DNA from: Aridibaculum aurantiacum
GTDB lineage: Bacteria; Bacteroidota; Bacteroidia; Chitinophagales; Chitinophagaceae
DNA length: 64,000 bases
Assembly (NCBI RefSeq): GCF_017355875.1
Contig: NZ_JAFEWC010000003.1
Coordinates: 935,001 to 999,000, forward strand
Direction of reading: 5' to 3'
The notes under the pieces were generated by a model. That model was not told the DNA's origin. It saw only the letters and a program-made list of their open reading frames with translations, and searched no databases. Below, piece after piece: positions 22,769-33,081 of this stretch. Position numbers and translations under genes: made by a program. The number at the start of each line of letters is the position of its first letter. Position 1 is the first letter of the stretch.

Positions 22769-24502
22769 CTATTCACCTGCAACCGAGTCGTCAGCTCGTA
22801 TATCTGCCACCGCCTCTATCTTACCATTGTTGATCATGATCAATTCCACTCTTCCAATGGTAGAAGCATAGCCTGCAATGCCGTAAGTTTTTACCTCGTA
22901 ACCCATCTGTTGTAATTGCTGTACAATGTTCTTAGGAAAATCGTGTTCTACCTGTATGACATCGGGCAGCCACTGGTGATGAAAACGCGGCGCATAAACC
23001 GCATCAGTCGGCTGCATTTTAAAATCTACAATATTGGTAATAACCTGAAAAACACTGGTTGGTATAGTAGCACCACCTGGCGTTCCCAATATGATGTAAG
23101 GCTTGTTATCCTTCAATACGATGGTAGGCGTCATTGAGCTAAGCATTCGTTTACCTGCAGCAATTGCATTGGCCTCGCCACCAACAACACCATACATGTT
23201 AGGCACACCTGGTTTTATGCTAAAGTCATCCATTTCATTATTCAGGAAAAAGCCGGCACCGCCAACCACTGTTTTGCTTCCAAAGGTTCCATTCAAGGTA
23301 GTAGTGAGCGATACTGCATTATTCCATTTATCAACTATACTTATGTGAGTGGTCTCCATACTCTCAATCACACCCGGTTTTGTCAAGCTGCTTTTGCCTG
23401 CTTTCGTGCTGTCGTAATCAGCCATTCGTTTTTTGAGATAAGCATCACTGGTAAGCGTAGCTGTAGGCACCTTGTAAAAATCCGGATCCCCCATATATTC
23501 TGCACGGTCAGCATAAGCACGGCGTTCTACTTCTGTTACCAGTTGTACTGCTTTGGTAGAATGGAAACCATACTTCGCCAATGGCCGATCTTCCACCATC
23601 TTCAGCATTTGAAGCAGTAGTATGCCGCCACTGCTTGGTGGTGGCATAGTGATGATCGTATGTCCTTTGTAGTTGAAGGTGATAGCCTCTCGTTTCTTCG
23701 GCTGGTAATTAGCAAGATCTGCATGATCAATAATTCCATTGCCACGCTTCATTTCTGCAACCAGAAGATCAGCTGTAGTTCCTTTGTAAAATCCATCCCT
23801 GCCTTTGTCTCTTATCCTGCGTAGTGTAGCGGCCAGTTCTTTTTGTATGAGTGTGTCGCCAGCTTTCCATTTCTCTTTTATGAAAACTGTGGGCGCTGTA
23901 TTATGCTGTTTAAAAATTGACTGGTTCTCATTCATCTTGTCAGCCTCTATGGCCGTAATCACAAAACCATATTCGGCCAGGTCTATAGCGGGCTGAATTA
24001 GTTCTTTGAAAGGTTTAGTAGCATAAGGCATGCTTTCAAATAAACCAGCTACGGTGCCGGGTATACCTGCAGCCAAATGACCGCGTTGCGATAAAGAAGT
24101 TTGTGCAACACCCTTATCATCTATATACATATTGCGATGTGCTTTGGCTGGTGCTGTTTCCCTGAAGTCTAAGGTGAATGTTTCCCCGTTCTGCAACCTG
24201 GCGACCATAAAACCACCACCACCTATATTGCCAGCACCGGGGTAAACTACTGCCAATGCAAGTTGGGTAGCGATAGCCGCATCTATGGCATTGCCACCAT
24301 CTTTTAAAATTTTTGCACCCACCATACTTCCCAGTGGATGCGCTGATACCACGGCTCCACTTGTATATTTTTCATTCTTCTTAATAGTATAATGGAATGG
24401 ATCTATTGCTTTGCCTTTACCAACAATAGATGGCACCGCTGTCTTGCATGCAATGAATAATAAACTACACGTTACTGCTACTATCACTCTCATATTTGGC
24501 AA
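22769..24502 (-). CDS. ggt: Gamma-glutamyltransferase, lipoprotein
   Basis: A 577-residue Ntn-hydrolase precursor. The lipobox LLFIAC (Cys19) suggests anchoring in the periplasm. AKILKDGGNAIDAAIA and NIGGGGFMV are N-terminal family blocks. The self-cleavage site is METTHISIV with Thr385 as the expected nucleophile of the small subunit. LNGTFGSKTVVGGAGFFLNNEMDDFS and LGTPGGATIPTSVFQ are conserved in the mature small subunit. The enzyme cleaves the gamma-glutamyl bond of glutathione-like peptides. It is divergent from the TonB receptor fusion. Confidence 0.93.
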   Translation of the reverse strand: MPNMRVIVAVTCSLLFIACKTAVPSIVGKGKAIDPFHYTIKKNEKYTSGAVVSAHPLGSMVGAKILKDGGNAIDAAIATQLALAVVYPGAGNIGGGGFMVARLQNGETFTLDFRETAPAKAHRNMYIDDKGVAQTSLSQRGHLAAGIPGTVAGLFESMPYATKPFKELIQPAIDLAEYGFVITAIEADKMNENQSIFKQHNTAPTVFIKEKWKAGDTLIQKELAATLRRIRDKGRDGFYKGTTADLLVAEMKRGNGIIDHADLANYQPKKREAITFNYKGHTIITMPPPSSGGILLLQMLKMVEDRPLAKYGFHSTKAVQLVTEVERRAYADRAEYMGDPDFYKVPTATLTSDAYLKKRMADYDSTKAGKSSLTKPGVIESMETTHISIVDKWNNAVSLTTTLNGTFGSKTVVGGAGFFLNNEMDDFSIKPGVPNMYGVVGGEANAIAAGKRMLSSMTPTIVLKDNKPYIILGTPGGATIPTSVFQVITNIVDFKMQPTDAVYAPRFHHQWLPDVIQVEHDFPKNIVQQLQQMGYEVKTYGIAGYASTIGRVELIMINNGKIEAVADIRADDSVAGE

Positions 24503-24659: not shown

Positions 24660-27600
24660 ATGAGAAAATTCTACGCATCATTCCGTTCTATTGGTATGCT
24701 TGCTTTTGCTCTGTTGATTAGCAGTATTGCCATGGCGCAATCTGTAATCCGCGGCACAGTACGCGATAGCCTAATGCCACTTGAAGGAGCCTCCGTACTT
24801 CTTGAAGGACAAAATGCAGGAACCCGCACCAACAATACGGGCACTTACGAGATCAGGGTTCGTCCGGGTTCATATACCATCATCATAAGTTTTGTAGGAT
24901 ACCAGCAACAGCGGCGCGCTGTAACGGTTGGTGCCAATCAAACAGTTACTGTAGATATGACGTTGGTGAAAGAGCAAACTACACAAGTAGTAACTGTTGT
25001 CGGTTCTCGTTCTGTTACTCCTCGTACCAATATTCAAACAGCATCTCCTGTGGATGTTTTTTCTTCGCGTGAACTACAGATGACAGGACAGATAGAGCCT
25101 ACGCAAATGATCAATTTTGTTGCTCCATCATTTAATTCATCGCGCCAGACCATTGCCGATGGTACCGATCATATAGATCCAGCAACGCTTCGTGGTTTAG
25201 GCCCTGACCAGGTTTTGGTTTTGATTAATGGACGCCGCAGGCACAATACAGCTTTGCTAAACGTAAACGGTACAATTGGACGTGGTTCAGTAGGTACCGA
25301 CCTTAACAGCATACCTGCTTCCGCTATTGAGCGTATAGAAGTTTTGCGCGATGGTGCATCTTCACAATATGGCTCGGATGCAATAGCCGGCGTGGTCAAC
25401 GTTGTTTTAAAAAGAGATTTCAAAAGAACATTGGTGAACCTGCATGGCGGACAGCATTATGCAGGTGATGGCAGAACATTGGGCGCTTCATTACAACAAG
25501 CTTTTCGTTTAGGTAAAAAAGGTTTTTTAGATGTTTTTGCTGATGCACGCTGGCGCGAAGGAACCAATCGTGCAGGTGACTTCACAGGTACATGGTACTA
25601 CAATATCCCGGGCGGTGCATCACAGGCAGTAAGAGACAGTATCACACGACTTGACAACGCCTTGATACAAAGCAGGGGCATGAGCCGTAAGAATACCATG
25701 CAGGTAGGCAACTCGAAAGTGGACAATTATGGATTGATGATCAACAGCGGTATTCCACTTACTGACAGGATAAACTTCAACCTGAATGCAGGAACCAATT
25801 TCCGCCAGGGACAATCAGCAGGATTTTATCGTTTTCCAAAACAAACTACCCAGGTGATACAAGATCTGTATCCTGATGGTTTTCTTCCTTTGATCAATTC
25901 TACCATAAGAGATAACAATCTTGCAGCATCTATTGACGGTATAACCAAAGGTGGTGTAAGATGGGATTTCGGCAGCCAGTGGGGCGCCAACTCATTTCTT
26001 TTCGATATCACTAATACAAACAATGCTTCGCAGTTTGCTGAAGGCTTGAATGCACAAACAGAATTTTATGCAGGTAAACTTCGTTTTGCACAAAGCACTA
26101 CAACGCTAAACCTGAGTAAAGATTTTGGTTCGCAGCTGGGGCTAAAAAGCTTTAACCTGGCAGTAGGTGGCGAAGGAAGAATAGACCGCTACCAGATAAT
26201 GCCGGGTGAATTTGGAAGCTATGGTGACTATGCACCGGGAAGCGGCAGGGCAGTAGGAGCACAGGTATTCCCCGGATTCACACCAGCTAATGCGGTTGAT
26301 GAAAACAGGTTTGTAACTGCAGGTTATGCTGATATTGAAACTGACCTCACCAACAACTTCTTGGTGAATGTGGCAGGACGTTATGAGCACTACAGCGACT
26401 TCGGTGGCAATTTTGCTGGTAAAGCTTCTGCCCGTTATAAAATTGCAGATGCCTTTTCTATAAGAGGAACAGTGAGCAATGGTTTCCGCGCTCCTTCACT
26501 GCACCAGCGTTTCTTCAACAATGTGGCTACGCTATTTATAAACACGCCACAGGGTTTGGTGGCTTCGCAAACAGCTACGTTTAAAAATGACAGCGAAATA
26601 GCAGCTGCATTTGGAATACCTGGTTTGAAGGCTGAAAAATCGATGAACTATAGCATTGGAATTACCTCTCGTCCTTACAAGAATATCAATATCACTGTGG
26701 ATGCTTACCAGATAGAGATCAAAGACAGGATTGTTCTAAGCGGTGATTTTGACAGGAGAAACAATGCCATCGTTAACCAATTGCTGCAGCCTTTCCCTAA
26801 TGTAACCGTTGCACGTTTTTTTGCTAACGCTATTGATACTCGTACACGTGGTTTAGATGTAGTCATCAATGGAAATTATGCTATGGGCAGGGGAATACTG
26901 GATGTAACCTTAGCGGGTAACATCAACAGGACAGAAGTAATAGGTAATGTAAAAACCACAGATAAACTTCCTGCAGACTCTCTTAATTCAAACACACTTT
27001 TCAATATAGAACAGCGTGCTATCATTGAAAGAGGGCAACCGCGCAACAAGTTTATGCTGAACCTTAACTACCGCATTGGCCGCATGAGTTTCATGCTGCG
27101 CAATACAAGGTTTGGTGAAGTGTCAACTGTATTCAATGGTACAGATAGAAGACGTGATGAAACGTTTGGCGCCAAAGTGGTAACAGATGCAAGCATCTCG
27201 GTAAGACCGATCCACTGGATGAATATAACAATTGGTGCAAACAATATAGCTGATGTTTATCCTGATCCTATTCGTAATGCAGCTAATACCGGTGAAGGAA
27301 GATTTGTATACAGCCGTAATGCAACGCAGTTTGGTTTCAACGGTGGTTACTATTATACCAACCTGAATTTTGACCTTACAGATATTAAGCGTAACAGGAA
27401 GATGAAAGAAGTGCCGCAAGCACCTGTAAAAGCTACACCGCCACCGCCTCCGGCGCCTGACCGTGATGGCGATGGTGTACCTGATGCAACAGATGCTTGT
27501 CCTGACCAGGCTGGTCCTGCAAGCCTGCAAGGCTGTCCTGATCGTGATGGTGATGGAGTAGCAGACAAAGACGATCGTTGTCCTGATGTTGCAGGAATCC

Positions 27601-28154
27601 GCATTTTCCAGGGCTGTCCTGATACTGATGGCGATGGTATTGAAGATGCAAAAGACAAATGCCCTAATGTATTTGGCGTAGCTAAATACGATGGTTGTCC
27701 TGTACCTGATACTGATGGTGATGGTGTAAACGATGAATACGACCAGTGTCCTACTGTTCCAGGTTTAATTGCAAACAATGGATGTCCTGCAAAACCAAAA
27801 GAAGAGGTACAGCAGGAAGTAGATGTAAAAGCAAAACATATCTTGTTTGTAACAGGAAGTGCAAGGCTTACTACATCATCATATGGTGCATTGAATGATA
27901 TTGCTACAACCATAAAAAACGATGCAAGCCTGGAAGTGGAAATTGAAGGACATACAGATAATACCGGCGGTCAGCAACTGAATCAAAAGCTGAGCGAGGA
28001 TAGGGCTGCTTCAGTTAAAAACTACCTGGTGTCTCAAGGTGTAAGCGCAGATAAAATATCTACCACTGGTTATGGTTTTTCAAAACCAATTGCAGATAAC
28101 AAAACCGCTGCAGGCAGAGCGAAAAACAGGAGAGTAGTAATTATCATCAAATAA
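24660..28154 (+). CDS. TonB-dependent receptor fused to thrombospondin type 3 repeats and an OmpA domain
   Basis: An 1164-residue outer-membrane protein. Signal peptide about 1-26; carboxypeptidase-regulatory-like domain about 27-110 (GTVRDSLMPLEGASV...SFVGYQ); plug about 115-235 (GPDQVLVLINGRRRH; GSDAIAGVVNVVLKRDF); barrel to about 918, with FRAPSLHQRFF as a late barrel hallmark. A linker ATPPPPPAP leads into four calcium-binding-type repeats (DGDGVPDATDACPD and similar, about 935-1043), then an OmpA C-terminal domain (about 1054-1164) with EIEGHTDNTGG, LSEDRAASVKNYL and GRAKNRRVVI, which binds peptidoglycan in this family. The substrate is unknown. The fusion would tie a TonB transporter to the cell wall. 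Confidence 0.9.
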   Translation: MRKFYASFRSIGMLAFALLISSIAMAQSVIRGTVRDSLMPLEGASVLLEGQNAGTRTNNTGTYEIRVRPGSYTIIISFVGYQQQRRAVTVGANQTVTVDMTLVKEQTTQVVTVVGSRSVTPRTNIQTASPVDVFSSRELQMTGQIEPTQMINFVAPSFNSSRQTIADGTDHIDPATLRGLGPDQVLVLINGRRRHNTALLNVNGTIGRGSVGTDLNSIPASAIERIEVLRDGASSQYGSDAIAGVVNVVLKRDFKRTLVNLHGGQHYAGDGRTLGASLQQAFRLGKKGFLDVFADARWREGTNRAGDFTGTWYYNIPGGASQAVRDSITRLDNALIQSRGMSRKNTMQVGNSKVDNYGLMINSGIPLTDRINFNLNAGTNFRQGQSAGFYRFPKQTTQVIQDLYPDGFLPLINSTIRDNNLAASIDGITKGGVRWDFGSQWGANSFLFDITNTNNASQFAEGLNAQTEFYAGKLRFAQSTTTLNLSKDFGSQLGLKSFNLAVGGEGRIDRYQIMPGEFGSYGDYAPGSGRAVGAQVFPGFTPANAVDENRFVTAGYADIETDLTNNFLVNVAGRYEHYSDFGGNFAGKASARYKIADAFSIRGTVSNGFRAPSLHQRFFNNVATLFINTPQGLVASQTATFKNDSEIAAAFGIPGLKAEKSMNYSIGITSRPYKNINITVDAYQIEIKDRIVLSGDFDRRNNAIVNQLLQPFPNVTVARFFANAIDTRTRGLDVVINGNYAMGRGILDVTLAGNINRTEVIGNVKTTDKLPADSLNSNTLFNIEQRAIIERGQPRNKFMLNLNYRIGRMSFMLRNTRFGEVSTVFNGTDRRRDETFGAKVVTDASISVRPIHWMNITIGANNIADVYPDPIRNAANTGEGRFVYSRNATQFGFNGGYYYTNLNFDLTDIKRNRKMKEVPQAPVKATPPPPPAPDRDGDGVPDATDACPDQAGPASLQGCPDRDGDGVADKDDRCPDVAGIRIFQGCPDTDGDGIEDAKDKCPNVFGVAKYDGCPVPDTDGDGVNDEYDQCPTVPGLIANNGCPAKPKEEVQQEVDVKAKHILFVTGSARLTTSSYGALNDIATTIKNDASLEVEIEGHTDNTGGQQLNQKLSEDRAASVKNYLVSQGVSADKISTTGYGFSKPIADNKTAAGRAKNRRVVIIIK

Positions 28155-28207: not shown

Positions 28208-28282
28208 AAATACAGGCTGCTGTTGCCTCTGTTTTAGTTGAATAATTATTTCTATTTTACTGCCACTACCAAAACTACTACT

Positions 28283-29977
28283 GTGAAAAAATTATTGATC
28301 CTACTGTTTTCGCTGGGCAGTACATGTATGATTACTGCACAGGTCCCGCTGGAAAGGCTGCCTGATGGTGGTGGTGCTTTCTCTTTTGAAGGACACCAGG
28401 ATGAAATGACACCTGCTCAACGGGCTGAAATAGTACGCATGCTAAAAGCCAATGAGCAAATGCTAAAGGAGAGAGGTCTCCTGCAGCCGCCAACGCAGCG
28501 CCCTGGCTCTATTGCTTTTCAACCGCCGCTACGACAAAAGGCCGGCTTCAACGACAATGGCTTCTTTGGAGTATCTTATTTTGTAGATCATAACCCTGGT
28601 GTTCCTAACCAACTGCTCGATTACCAATGTGGCAACCGTACATACGACATGGGCTCAGGCTATAATCATAAAGGAACGGATATGTACCTCTGGCCCTTTG
28701 CATGGAAGAAGATGTCAAATGGAGCAGTAGAGGTGGTAGCCGCTGCCGCAGGAACCATAGTTGGCAAAATGAATGGCAACTACGACCTGAACTGTGCTTT
28801 CTGTACGAGTAGCTGCCAATGGAATGCCGTTTACATTATACACGACGATGGCTCTGTAGCATGGTATGGCCACCTGAAGAATAACAGCCTCACCAGCAAA
28901 CCAATTGGTACAACGGTGGCAGCTGGAGAATATTTGGGTGTTGTGGGAAGTTCTGGAAATAGCACCGGGCCTCACCTGCATTTGGAAATATATACCAACA
29001 CTAACTACGACCAGCTTGTAGATCCATATGGTGGCAACTGCAACAGCATGAATGGTACTACCAGCTGGTGGCAAAACCAGGAGCCGTACCGCGTTTCTAC
29101 GCTAAATAAAATAATGACACATGGCGCTGCACCATTATTAGGTTCCTGCCCGGCTAATGAGGTGGTGAATGAACAGGTAAATTTCGTCAACAGCCAGACC
29201 GTTTACCTTGGAAGTTATTACCGCGATCAGCAGAACATGCAGCAGACAGTTCACACCATTCTACGGCCAGATAATACCGTCTATCAAACATGGACGCAAA
29301 CGGCTGCCACAACCTATAACTTTTCTTATTGGTACTATTCTATTGTCCTTCCAGGTGCTGCACCTTCTGGCGTTTGGAAGTATAAAGTAAACTACAACGG
29401 CACCGAGCAGGTAACTGACTTTGCAGTGAATACTATCCTGCCATTGCAGCTTATTTCATTCAATGCCACACGACAAGGATCAGTTGTAAAACTTGATGTG
29501 TCTACGCAGCATGAAACCAATGTCTCCCATTTCAATCTTCTCCGCTCCGCCGACGGCAGAAATTATAATTCCGTTGGAAAATTGGCAGCACGCAACGAAG
29601 TGGCTAATCATTATAATTGGAGGGATGAGAAGCCTGTTGCAGGTACAAATTATTACAAGCTAGAAATGGTGGATAAAGATGGTATCATCAAACATTCAGA
29701 TGTAAGACAGGTGAAGATGATTATGGAAGGAATGTTCACATCTGTAGCCGGTAATCCTTTTATCAAGAGTATTTCACTCCAGGTAAAAGAGCGCCTGAAG
29801 GATGCGCAGTTGCAACTGGTAAACATGAATGGACAGGTTGTTTGGCAGAAAGACAGGCTACAATTGCAGCAGGGCTATATACAGATTGATGCTGCTTCAT
29901 TGGCACGTGGTGTATACCAGTTGATTGTTCGGGTACGAAATGAAGTAGTGGATCGACACACGGTGGTGAAGCAATAA
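28283..29977 (+). CDS. Secreted M23 (LytM) metallopeptidase with T9SS-type C-terminal domain
   Basis: Start chosen at GTG 28283 (564 aa) because it gives a normal signal peptide (MKKLLILLFSLGSTCMITAQ); a TTG at 28238 would add 15 polar residues. The M23 zinc site is visible in YNHKGTDMYLW (H-x3-D) and STGPHLHLEIY (HxH), with AWYGHLKNN between. M23 enzymes cut peptidoglycan cross-links or peptides. After residue about 395, LISFNATRQGSVVKLDV and LARGVYQLIVRVRNEVVDRHTVVKQ look like a type A sorting domain for T9SS export. It follows its own upstream terminator, so is transcribed separately. Confidence 0.85.
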   Translation: MKKLLILLFSLGSTCMITAQVPLERLPDGGGAFSFEGHQDEMTPAQRAEIVRMLKANEQMLKERGLLQPPTQRPGSIAFQPPLRQKAGFNDNGFFGVSYFVDHNPGVPNQLLDYQCGNRTYDMGSGYNHKGTDMYLWPFAWKKMSNGAVEVVAAAAGTIVGKMNGNYDLNCAFCTSSCQWNAVYIIHDDGSVAWYGHLKNNSLTSKPIGTTVAAGEYLGVVGSSGNSTGPHLHLEIYTNTNYDQLVDPYGGNCNSMNGTTSWWQNQEPYRVSTLNKIMTHGAAPLLGSCPANEVVNEQVNFVNSQTVYLGSYYRDQQNMQQTVHTILRPDNTVYQTWTQTAATTYNFSYWYYSIVLPGAAPSGVWKYKVNYNGTEQVTDFAVNTILPLQLISFNATRQGSVVKLDVSTQHETNVSHFNLLRSADGRNYNSVGKLAARNEVANHYNWRDEKPVAGTNYYKLEMVDKDGIIKHSDVRQVKMIMEGMFTSVAGNPFIKSISLQVKERLKDAQLQLVNMNGQVVWQKDRLQLQQGYIQIDAASLARGVYQLIVRVRNEVVDRHTVVKQ

Positions 29978-30477: not shown

Positions 30478-30588
30478 TTCAGTTAGTTAGGTTTTGGAGC
30501 TTTGAATGTAAGTAATTAATCTATTTATACGGGGCATAGATCCAGCATGTGCTTTTTCCAACTTATTTTCACGGCACTAAAAGTCTTT

Positions 30589-33081
30589 ATGAAAAATATC
30601 GTCGTAGTATTCTTTTCTATTGTGCTGGCAAGTGGTGTTTCAGCACAAACATTACAAAGTCCCGAACAGTTTTTAGGTTATAAAGTAGGAACGAGGTTCA
30701 CGCCTCATCATAAGATTGTTGCCTATGTACGGTCTGTGGCCCAGGCTGTGCCGTCGCAGGTAAAAGTGGAGAAATATGGAGAGACCTATGAAGGACGGGA
30801 CCTTTTGCTGGCATACATAGGTAGTGCTGCCAATATCCAACGGCTTGAAGCCATCCGCACAAACAACCTGCAACTGGCAGGATTGGCAAATGGTAATGCA
30901 CCGCTGGCCAATGCACCGGCTATTGTCTGGTTGAGTTACAATGTGCATGGCAACGAACCATCTTCTTCGGAAGCAGCAATGTTGGCATTGCATGCTTTGG
31001 TAGATCCTACCAATACACAAACAAAGAAATATTTAGAAAATACAGTTGTTATCATTGATCCATGTCTAAATCCTGATGGCCGCGATCGTTATGTGAATTG
31101 GTATTCTTCAGTGGCTGCCAAAACACCAGATCCTAATCCACAGGCGCGTGAACATAGTGAGCCATGGCCAGGCGGCAGAAGCAATCACTACAACTTTGAC
31201 CTGAACCGCGATTGGGCATGGCAAACGCAGGTGGAAACACGGCAGCGCATTGTAAAATATAACCAGTGGATGCCGCATGTTCACGTAGATTTTCACGAAC
31301 AGTTTCACAACAACCCTTATTATTTTGCCCCTGCTGCAGAACCATTTCACGAGGTGATCACTCCATGGCAGCGCTCGTTCCAGACTACTATCGGTATAAA
31401 CAATGCACGCTACTTCGATCAGCAGGGTTGGTTGTTCTTTACCAAAGAAAGCTTCGACCTGTTGTACCCATCTTATGGCGATACTTATCCTACTTACAAC
31501 GGTGCAATTGGTATGACATACGAACAGGCAGGCCATAGCAGGGGCGGACTTGCTATACGAACAGATGTAGGTGATACGCTTACGCTGGTCGATCGTGCAC
31601 AGCACCATTTTACCACTTCTATCTCTACAGTGGAAGTAGCATCGCAGCACGCGGGTCAGTTGGTAAATGAGTTTAAAAAGTTCTTTGACGATAGCCGAAG
31701 CGGCAAAGGCAACCAGTACAAGACTTACATTATGACCAGCGACAACGAAGAAAAACTTCGCAAGCTGGCTGAATTGCTTACGCTTAATGGCATTAGCTAT
31801 GGCTCCACCAGGACTTCCGGCGTTCGCGGCATGAACTACAACAACAGCAAGATGGAAAACGTAAACCTGAAGCGTTTCCACATAGCAGTCAGTACGGCAC
31901 AGCCACGTTCGGTGCTGGCAAAAGTTTTATTAGATCCTCATACTGCTCTGCCTGATTCTAATACTTACGACATCACTGCCTGGGCACTTCCTTATGCACA
32001 TGGGGTAGATGCCTATGCCGTAAGAGAAGCATTGCCTATTCAACCTGCAGGAGCCTGGGGTGAGGCGCAGGCTTTTGAGAATTCAAGCTATGGCTATCTC
32101 ATCAAGTATAATTCTGTAGCTGGTGTTCGTATGATGAGCGAGTTGCTCCGCGAAGGCATCCGCATCCGTTATGCAGAGCAGCCATTTACCTACAAAGGCA
32201 AGCAATACAGCCGTGGAACGATGATCGTACTGGTGCAGGGCAATAAGCCAGCTCTGCATGAAACACTTACTCGACTTGCACGTACCAATGTAGTAGAGAT
32301 AGATCCCTTACGTTCAGGTTTTATGGAGCAAGGTCCTGATGTTGGCTCGCCGTATATGCGCTATGTGCAAACGCCACGTGTAGCGCTTGTAACTGGCGAG
32401 CAGGTTTCTTCCTTATCTGCAGGCCAGGTATGGCACTTTTTCGAACAGCAGATAAATTATCCTGTTACGCTTATCAATGCATCTGATATAGGAAGAGCCA
32501 ACCTGCAGGATTTCAATGTTATCATTTTTCCTGATGGTTATTTCAAGGCATTTGGAGAGGAAAGCACCAACAATAAGTTGAAAGATTATGTACGTGGCGG
32601 TGGTAGAATAATAGCAATGGAAAATGCGGTGCAGTTGATGGCTGGGAAAGATTGGGGGCTGAAGCAAAGGGAGGAAAAGCCGGAAGAAAAATCAACGTAT
32701 GCTAACCTCCGCACATATGCTAACCGTGAAAGGGAAGGATTGACTGATCATATACCAGGTGCTATCTACCGGGTTCACCTGGATAGAACACACCCGCTTG
32801 CTTTTGGCTACGACAGTACTTATTACAGCTTAAAACTGAATGGTGATGTGTACGAGTACATGAAGGATGGCTGGAATGTTGGCTACTTCAAACGTGATAA
32901 TTATGTAACAGGGTTTGCTGGCACAAACGTAAAGGCCAGGCTGGTGGATGGATTGAACTTTGGCGTACAGGAAATGGGCCGCGGATCAGTTATATATTTT
33001 GTAGATGATCCATTATTCCGCGCCTTCTGGGAAAATGGAAAACAGTTGTTTGCTAATGCTGTTTTTTTGGTGGGGCAGTAG
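30589..33081 (+). CDS. Secreted M14 family zinc carboxypeptidase
   Basis: An 830-residue protein; the ATG at 30589 gives a signal peptide ending VSAQ, while the frame is open from an ATG at 30547 with a less typical N-terminus. The M14 zinc-binding pair lies in VWLSYNVHGNEPSSSEAAM (HxxE), followed by DPCLNPDGRDRYVNW and the third ligand His near HVHVDFHEQFHNNPYYF. The Glu of GMTYEQAGH is the likely catalytic base. From about residue 590 a glutamine-amidotransferase-like region (VIIFPDGYFKAFGEE; YVRGGGRIIAMENAV) is attached, an arrangement known in Bacteroidota M14 proteins. Substrate peptide unknown. Confidence 0.87.
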   Translation: MKNIVVVFFSIVLASGVSAQTLQSPEQFLGYKVGTRFTPHHKIVAYVRSVAQAVPSQVKVEKYGETYEGRDLLLAYIGSAANIQRLEAIRTNNLQLAGLANGNAPLANAPAIVWLSYNVHGNEPSSSEAAMLALHALVDPTNTQTKKYLENTVVIIDPCLNPDGRDRYVNWYSSVAAKTPDPNPQAREHSEPWPGGRSNHYNFDLNRDWAWQTQVETRQRIVKYNQWMPHVHVDFHEQFHNNPYYFAPAAEPFHEVITPWQRSFQTTIGINNARYFDQQGWLFFTKESFDLLYPSYGDTYPTYNGAIGMTYEQAGHSRGGLAIRTDVGDTLTLVDRAQHHFTTSISTVEVASQHAGQLVNEFKKFFDDSRSGKGNQYKTYIMTSDNEEKLRKLAELLTLNGISYGSTRTSGVRGMNYNNSKMENVNLKRFHIAVSTAQPRSVLAKVLLDPHTALPDSNTYDITAWALPYAHGVDAYAVREALPIQPAGAWGEAQAFENSSYGYLIKYNSVAGVRMMSELLREGIRIRYAEQPFTYKGKQYSRGTMIVLVQGNKPALHETLTRLARTNVVEIDPLRSGFMEQGPDVGSPYMRYVQTPRVALVTGEQVSSLSAGQVWHFFEQQINYPVTLINASDIGRANLQDFNVIIFPDGYFKAFGEESTNNKLKDYVRGGGRIIAMENAVQLMAGKDWGLKQREEKPEEKSTYANLRTYANREREGLTDHIPGAIYRVHLDRTHPLAFGYDSTYYSLKLNGDVYEYMKDGWNVGYFKRDNYVTGFAGTNVKARLVDGLNFGVQEMGRGSVIYFVDDPLFRAFWENGKQLFANAVFLVGQ

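What the first reader, a model, noticed from the sequence alone, without database searches (positions are those of the whole stretch)
24660..28154. TonB-dependent receptor with thrombospondin repeats and an OmpA cell-wall domain
A complete receptor (regulatory-like domain, plug, barrel) continues in frame through a Pro linker, four DGDG calcium-type repeats and a complete OmpA domain. The last barrel strand is at about residue 910, so the added part must lie in the periplasm. That places a peptidoglycan anchor on the TonB side of the channel, which could fix the receptor beneath a cell-wall site or change how it meets TonB. Such a fusion is not part of the standard receptor plan.
Basis: seen in the sequence. 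Interest (0 to 1): 0.82.

Follow-up and report, generated by a model that had tools for sequence, protein, structure and literature searches.

The report
Nutrient receptor with cell-wall anchor
A bacterium carries a nutrient-uptake channel whose gene continues into a complete cell-wall-binding tail like that of another outer-membrane protein, a real and conserved but uncommon arrangement that would be expected to pin the channel to the wall.

Summary
Window 24660-28154 (+) is one open frame of 1164 aa: signal peptide, CarboxypepD_reg domain, plug, 22-strand TonB-dependent barrel, Pro-rich linker, four DxDGDGxxDxxDxCP repeats and a complete OmpA domain. It is not a sequencing or assembly join: intact fused genes occur in seven further distinct loci (receptor part 39-71% identical), plus one with a broken frame and one that stops after the repeats. 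The tail resembles the whole periplasmic half of the genome's own OmpA-type protein (54% identical), is under purifying selection and keeps the Asp/Arg pair that binds diaminopimelate in A. baumannii OmpA. Most homologous receptors fetched lack the tail, with no OmpA or repeat DNA in their flanks. The receptor lies divergent to gamma-glutamyltransferase and often upstream of an M14 carboxypeptidase, tail or no tail, so it is probably an importer of peptides or peptide-derived compounds with an added peptidoglycan anchor, accessory to transport, that limits receptor mobility and adds an outer membrane-wall link. Wall binding, substrate and effect on TonB are inferred. New variant of known kinds.

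The parts
24660..28154 (+). Fused TonB-dependent receptor-TSP3-OmpA gene, 1164 aa
   Evidence: Single ORF; Pfam domains; fused homologues
24660..24740 (+). Signal-peptide-like N terminus (residues 1-27, ...AMAQ)
   Evidence: Read from the translation; helix 2-25 in the model; no signal-peptide tool was run
24747..24965 (+). CarboxypepD_reg-like N-terminal extension (residues 30-102)
   Evidence: Pfam 1.4e-17
25032..25394 (+). Plug domain (residues 125-245)
   Evidence: Pfam 1.5e-17
25428..27374 (+). Beta-barrel, 22 strands (residues 257-905)
   Evidence: AlphaFold2/DSSP, strands counted by me; Foldseek to PirA, PfeA, Cir, FepA, BtuB
27384..27455 (+). Pro-rich flexible linker (residues 909-932)
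   Evidence: Residues 920-931 pLDDT < 50; least alike part in 4 of the 6 pairs compared
27456..27779 (+). Four thrombospondin type 3 calcium-type repeats (residues 933-1040)
   Evidence: Motif scan; PF02412 whole-protein score 42 bits, cut-off 25; match to 5wtl chain A
27843..28130 (+). OmpA domain (residues 1062-1157), with LSx2RAx2Vx3L motif at 1111-1123
   Evidence: Pfam 2e-25; motif; block pLDDT 86-96
27957..27959 (+). Asp1100, counterpart of A. baumannii OmpA D271 (DAP contact)
   Evidence: GHTD motif position and the same 15-residue spacing to the Arg; a PMC6572160 passage names D271/R286; the equivalence, by motif and spacing, is mine
28002..28004 (+). Arg1115, counterpart of A. baumannii OmpA R286 (DAP contact)
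   Evidence: As for Asp1100
22769..24502 (-). Gamma-glutamyltransferase, divergent neighbour
   Evidence: Pfam 7e-163, NCBIfam TIGR00066 over cut-off; recurrent neighbour
30547..33081 (+). M14 zinc carboxypeptidase family protein, downstream neighbour
   Evidence: Pfam 1.8e-21; same-strand downstream gene in part of the fused and unfused loci
28238..29977 (+). M23 peptidase with type IX secretion sorting tail, between receptor and M14 gene in this genome
   Evidence: Pfam; no match at 1e-5 in the other 71 receptor loci scanned, whose flanks are mostly short

Best explanation
It is a TonB-dependent outer-membrane transporter, most likely for peptides or peptide-derived compounds processed by the adjacent gamma-glutamyltransferase and M14 carboxypeptidase, onto whose last barrel strand the entire periplasmic half of an OmpA-type protein (linker, four TSP3 repeats, OmpA domain) has been grafted. 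Import runs in the ordinary way: ligand binds outside, the N-terminal side of the plug is engaged by TonB. The tail reaches through the periplasm as a calcium-stiffened spacer and its OmpA domain binds diaminopimelate in peptidoglycan non-covalently. This pins the receptor relative to the wall, limits its drift, and adds one more outer membrane-wall link in a genome in which no TolB was detected. Shown here: architecture, predicted fold and strand count, conservation, purifying selection, kinship of the tail with OmpA proteins, recurrent neighbours. Inferred: wall binding, calcium binding, substrate class, reduced mobility, the direction of the graft.
For: Domains; 22 strands with the last ending at 905 and a disordered linker; Foldseek best hits are TonB-dependent receptors; tail 54% identical over 246 residues to the genome's own 470-aa-frame OmpA-type protein L002 and 270 bits to solved chain 5wtl_A, listed as 'OmpA family protein'; D1100/R1115, the same Asp and Arg in 9 of 9 fused tails and 14 of 15 standalone ones; dN/dS of the OmpA part 0.14 (L019-L020) and 0.10 (L018-L060), of the repeats 0.04 and 0.02; divergent gamma-glutamyltransferase in 9 of 9 fused, broken-fused or TSP3-only loci with at least 600 bases upstream, and in 14 of 47 unfused ones (related sequences, so not independent counts); no TolB_N match in the genome, six TonB_C matches.
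Against: Most homologous receptors have no tail (43 of 52 rows in the barrel tree), among them ones in the same neighbourhood, and L017 lacks the OmpA domain while keeping the repeats: the tail is dispensable for the main function. No ligand evidence. M14 lies downstream on the same strand in only 3 of 6 testable near fused loci, one of them (L110) 8 kb away, and the window's own M14 gene lies behind an M23 gene. The TolB_N control rang in Bacteroides ihuae, so its absence is not a rule for the phylum. One pair, window-L025, gives dN/dS 0.39 for the OmpA domain, with dS near saturation. The repeats are modelled with only moderate confidence (block pLDDT 58-80).
Confidence: 0.62

Rival explanations
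1. Structural moonlighting: the fused receptor has become mainly an OmpA-like wall tether, a substitute for Pal or OmpA, with transport secondary.
For: No TolB_N in the genome; [quoted passage not shown] in G001 (94% complete) the fused gene is the only match at 1e-25 to the TSP3-OmpA query.
Against: The genome has 15 OmpA-domain places including a standalone TSP3-OmpA protein; the plug is 82-98% identical in the six pairs of near fused homologues compared and the barrel is under purifying selection where measurable, so transport is kept; L017 lacks the OmpA domain. Passages of PMC5053529 report no outer-membrane defect on loss of the wall-binding PorE in P. gingivalis, so such domains need not matter for stability.
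Confidence: 0.12
2. Neutral or weakly useful domain accretion: a chance fusion that is tolerated and repeatedly lost.
For: Patchy distribution; fused receptors are not one clade in the barrel tree (AU p 2e-5); L017 lacks the OmpA part.
Against: dN/dS about 0.1 in the OmpA domain and 0.02-0.04 in the repeats for the two pairs with unsaturated or least saturated synonymous sites; wall-binding Asp and Arg kept in 9 of 9 fused tails; four repeats kept even in L038, whose receptor is 39% identical.
Confidence: 0.13
3. The OmpA domain is a periplasmic ligand-binding part: it catches diaminopimelate-containing wall peptides that come in or leave through the barrel, feeding the gamma-glutamyltransferase and M14 enzymes (wall-peptide salvage).
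For: Neighbours able in principle to act on gamma-glutamyl and C-terminal peptide bonds; an M23 wall-hydrolase-type gene next door in this genome; DAP-type pocket residues present.
Against: Unfused orthologues have the same neighbours, so salvage would not need the tail; the M23 gene was found in none of the other 71 loci; M14 has only one weak match among solved structures, a carboxypeptidase B; the gamma-glutamyltransferase matches ordinary solved gamma-glutamyltranspeptidases (best 2e0w).
Confidence: 0.08
4. Assembly or sequencing error joining two genes.
For: None found; reads were not available.
Against: Eight distinct intact fused loci from separate genomes, receptor part 39-100% identical to the window's.
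Confidence: 0.01

Closest known systems
TonB-dependent transporters of the FepA/PirA/BtuB fold, Bacteroidota type with CarboxypepD_reg extension
   Same: Plug, 22-strand barrel, N-terminal extension; Foldseek top hits
   Different: Continues after the last strand into about 260 residues: linker, TSP3 repeats and an OmpA domain
OmpA-type proteins with TSP3 spacer (own-genome L002; solved chain 5wtl_A)
   Same: Whole periplasmic half, 54% identical to L002, 270 bits to 5wtl_A; same Asp/Arg pair and, in the window and L002, the LSx2RAx2Vx3L motif
   Different: The small barrel in front is replaced by a TonB-dependent transporter
PorE (PG1058) of the type IX secretion system
   Same: Multidomain Bacteroidota envelope protein with a carboxypeptidase-regulatory-type fold and an OmpA domain; P. 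gingivalis PorE is stated to bind peptidoglycan in vitro (PMC12204202 section 10; architecture in passages of PMC5053529)
   Different: PorE is a predicted lipoprotein with TPR and beta-propeller and no channel
Pal of the Tol-Pal system
   Same: OmpA-type wall-binding domain at the outer membrane
   Different: Pal is lipid-anchored and mobilised by TolB; here a channel carries the domain and no TolB_N was found in the genome

Membership tests
TonB-dependent transporter | Plug domain | tested here: met
   PF07715 1.5e-17, residues 125-245
TonB-dependent transporter | 22-strand barrel | tested here: met
   DSSP of the AlphaFold2 model, 22 strands by my count, 257-905; Foldseek
TonB-dependent transporter | TonB box before the plug | tested here: inconclusive
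   VVTVVGSR at 110-117 looks like one (resemblance recalled); no test of TonB contact
SusC/RagA (TIGR04056) | Score over the family cut-off, and a SusD neighbour | tested here: not met
   76.9 bits against cut-off 368; none of the seven neighbouring proteins scanned is SusD
OmpA family, periplasmic domain | OmpA domain with wall-binding Asp and Arg | tested here: met
   PF00691 2e-25; D1100 and R1115
OmpA family, periplasmic domain | Binds peptidoglycan | not testable with these tools
   Needs a pull-down
OmpA protein in the strict sense | Small 8-strand barrel in front | tested here: not met
   22-strand TonB-dependent barrel instead
PorE | TPR, beta-propeller and lipoprotein signal | tested here: not met
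   No TPR or propeller family among the seven Pfam families at E <= 0.01; no Cys in the first 27 residues as read
Pal / Tol-Pal | Lipoprotein anchor and TolB partner | tested here: not met
   No lipobox Cys as read; no TolB_N match in the genome
Thrombospondin type 3 repeats | DxDGDGxxDxxDxCP motif | tested here: met
   Four exact copies; calcium binding itself not tested

The most novel reading that the evidence does not exclude
A natural force-bearing anchor: because TonB pulls on the plug from the inner membrane, fixing the same receptor to the wall gives the pull a fixed counterpoint and lets TonB-powered transport act, at the same time, as an energised outer membrane-wall link, a partial stand-in for a missing Tol-Pal system. 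The anchored receptor would also sit at fixed wall positions rather than drift with the membrane.
Probability: 0.13. Interest if true: 0.78.

Novelty: new variant of a known kind. Interest (0 to 1): 0.52.

Why it matters
Whether a TonB-dependent transporter works when tied to the wall, and how outer-membrane proteins are fixed or moved in Bacteroidota, are open questions. Here nature offers matched sets: the same receptor in the same gene neighbourhood with the full tail, with repeats only (L017), and with no tail (L021, L022, L061). That makes the effect of wall anchoring on mobility, TonB use and envelope stability directly testable by tail deletion.

Tried and rejected
Assembly error: rejected by eight distinct intact fused loci. 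Receptor and OmpA as separate neighbours in relatives: not seen. A translated search with the OmpA domain and the repeats over 72 receptor loci (L016-L079 and L105-L112, duplicates included) matched 19, in each of these only at the fused or repeat-bearing receptor gene, and none of the other 53; a first pass had been stricter, asking for 200 aligned residues. Most of these loci have about 1.5 kb of flank, so a more distant OmpA gene is not excluded. SusC/SusD: rejected. A single clade of fused receptors: rejected on the barrel tree (AU p 2e-5; a quick-search tree of 52 rows that leaves out L026, L027, L037 and duplicates), whereas the tails are one side of a branch against 15 standalone OmpA tails (from 12 of the 14 genomes searched) with modest support 89/88. 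So either one old fusion with several losses, or transfer of the tail, or repeated fusion with the same kind of tail; I cannot decide. L037 and L038 tails as a pair are not rejected (p 0.46).

Other long frames: I looked at the ends of G260 (L076), G221 (L079), G337 (L107), G110 (L112), G537 (L106) and G533 (L105): none has the tail. Not looked at: G210, G125, G133, G209, G355, G361, G624 and G643 (frames 1003-1038 aa), and matches cut from the lists. A search for unrelated receptor-OmpA fusions by the OmpA domain (60 genomes) lists only its best-scoring rows, so such fusions elsewhere are not excluded. From memory, protein databases list some receptor-OmpA architectures; I could not check.

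Literature: ten full-text searches, seen as listings (titles and starts of abstracts; one search listed 20 of 178 papers), showed no description of a TonB-dependent receptor fused to an OmpA domain and no link of gamma-glutamyltransferase to such a receptor; the library lacks most subscription journals and bioRxiv. Seen further: PMC12204202 passages and section 10, PMC6572160 passages, PMC5053529 passages.
Full report
What is there. Window 24660-28154 (+) is a single open frame of 1164 aa. Pfam finds CarboxypepD_reg 30-102, Plug 125-245, the TonB-dependent barrel 375-863, TSP_3 repeats and OmpA 1062-1157. Four exact DxDGDGxxDxxDxCP motifs stand at 934, 961, 988 and 1017, and the OmpA motif LSx2RAx2Vx3L at 1111 (the motif is given in PMC5053529, passage). 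AlphaFold2 on an alignment of 32 sequences gives mean pLDDT 81.6, pTM 0.68. I count 22 barrel strands from 257 to 905; residues 920-931 are below pLDDT 50, the repeats are moderate (block means 58-80), the OmpA domain high (86-96). Foldseek's best solved matches are PirA, PfeA, Cir, FepA and BtuB. An even number of strands with the plug on the N-terminal side puts the tail in the periplasm (established for this family).

Not an artefact. and the genome searches brought in relatives. Among distinct receptor loci, fused intact genes are: the window (L028), L016, L018, L019, L020, L025, L110 (same gene as L060) and L109 (same gene as L038); L111 (same gene as L037) is fused but its frame is broken in that assembly; L017 ends after the four repeats. 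The receptor part of the seven others is 39-71% identical to the window's. In one search, 394 genomes of the family were searched, 136 had a match at 1e-100, and I identified 8 intact fused genes, 1 broken one and 1 repeats-only one in them; the match list was cut, so these are lower bounds. In one search, 396 genomes of the order were searched and 43 had a match at 1e-130; the fused genes visible there are only in the window's family (G000, G019, G277). G001 and G003, which the search calls same genus, correspond in position, length and identity to L016 and L017, Segetibacter records, so the window is very probably from Segetibacter or close kin (inference).

Kin of the tail. Of 15 OmpA-domain places in the genome, one, L002, is a 470-aa-frame OmpA-type protein whose linker, repeats and OmpA domain are 54% identical to window residues 919-1164. 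Solved chain 5wtl_A aligns over repeats and OmpA domain together with 270 bits. The simplest reading is that a complete OmpA periplasmic half was moved onto a transporter barrel; the direction is inferred.

History. In a tree of 24 tails, the 9 fused ones are one side of a branch against 15 standalone ones, support 89/88, not starred. In a tree of 52 receptor barrels (8 fused, 1 repeats-only, 43 plain), fused ones fall in two places: a near group of 7 plus L017, and L038 beside unfused L039 and L076; one clade is rejected (AU p 2e-5). One fusion with several losses, transfer of the tail, or repeated fusion all remain possible. Some unfused genes end in short linker-like tails (L022, L023, L076), which would fit losses.

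Constraint. dN/dS in the OmpA domain is 0.142 (L019-L020) and 0.099 (L018-L060), in the repeats 0.043 and 0.022, in the plug 0.012 and 0.068; in L018-L060 the synonymous distances are already high (1.3-2.1). Of the other four pairs, synonymous sites are saturated or nearly so; of the two that still give a value for the OmpA domain, L018-L019 gives 0.114 (dS 2.9) and window-L025 0.388 (dS 1.47). The tail is therefore kept by selection in these lineages, in the OmpA domain somewhat more loosely than in the plug. D1100 and R1115 have the spacing of D271 and R286 of A. baumannii OmpA, reported to contact diaminopimelic acid (PMC6572160 discussion passage). The Asp and the Arg at this spacing are in 9 of 9 fused and 14 of 15 standalone tails; the strict LSx2RAx2Vx3L pattern is in only 6 of 9 and 6 of 15.

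Neighbourhood. Divergently placed upstream is a gamma-glutamyltransferase (TIGR00066 over cut-off); downstream, behind an M23 protein with a type IX sorting tail, an M14 carboxypeptidase. Among distinct loci with at least 600 bases upstream, the divergent transferase is present in 6 of 6 near fused, 1 of 1 repeats-only, 1 of 1 broken fused and 1 of 1 distant fused loci, and in 5 of 12, 8 of 20 and 1 of 15 unfused loci at 50% or more, 40-50% and 30-40% identity. M14 downstream on the same strand is found in 3 of 6 near fused (one of them, L110, as a partial match 8 kb away at the edge of the stretch), 1 of 1 repeats-only, 1 of 1 broken fused (2.6 kb away), 0 of 1 distant fused, and 4 of 12, 4 of 16 and 1 of 14 unfused loci with at least 900 bases downstream. 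Flanks of the genome-search loci are only about 1.5 kb, so M14 counts are low estimates; for the window the M14 gene lies beyond the flank of L028 and is not in these counts. The fusion thus appeared only in receptors of the transferase-linked kind, in the loci that could be judged. The set suggests uptake of peptides, perhaps gamma-glutamyl ones; that is inference from neighbours.

No separate OmpA gene. Of 72 receptor loci (duplicates included) searched with the OmpA domain and the repeats, 19 match, all at a fused or repeats-only receptor; 53 do not match at all.

How it probably works. Ordinary TonB-driven import, with an added non-covalent wall anchor on a calcium-stiffened spacer. The anchor is not required for transport, since unfused orthologues keep the same neighbours and L017 lacks the OmpA part. 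Its likely gain is to fix the receptor relative to the wall and to add an outer membrane-wall link; [quoted passage not shown] Against a stability role: loss of PorE in P. gingivalis is reported to leave the outer membrane normal (PMC5053529 passages). The control genome Bacteroides ihuae did match TolB_N, so the absence is for this genome only.

Verdict. It joins two known kinds in an uncommon way: new variant of a known kind, interest 0.52.

Noticed in passing
L017:5992-9174 (Segetibacter sp. 3557_3; also L030): Same receptor with four TSP3 repeats but a stop right before where the OmpA domain would begin, and no OmpA-domain DNA anywhere in the 15 kb locus: a natural tail-truncated form.
   Followed up: partly
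G003 and G001: No standalone TSP3-OmpA protein at 1e-25 in these two genomes of the same genus, although 12 of the other 12 genomes searched have one or more; G003 also lacks the OmpA part on its receptor.
   Followed up: no
L037/L111 (G032): A distant fused gene whose frame is interrupted in that assembly; assembly error or recent inactivation not told apart.
   Followed up: no
L018 versus L060: The barrel is only 58% identical while the repeats are 92% and the OmpA domain 80% identical, which hints at exchange of tail or barrel between copies.
   Followed up: no
window 28238-29977: M23 peptidase with type IX sorting tail between receptor and M14 gene; not found in the other 71 receptor loci scanned, most with short flanks.
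   Followed up: partly
G000:C1:2692207-2692479: A second TSP3 protein (466-aa frame) in the genome, not at any of the 15 OmpA places.
   Followed up: no
L108:4557-7466 (G000:C1): Own-genome paralogue of the receptor, 40% identical, without tail and without the transferase neighbour.
   Followed up: partly
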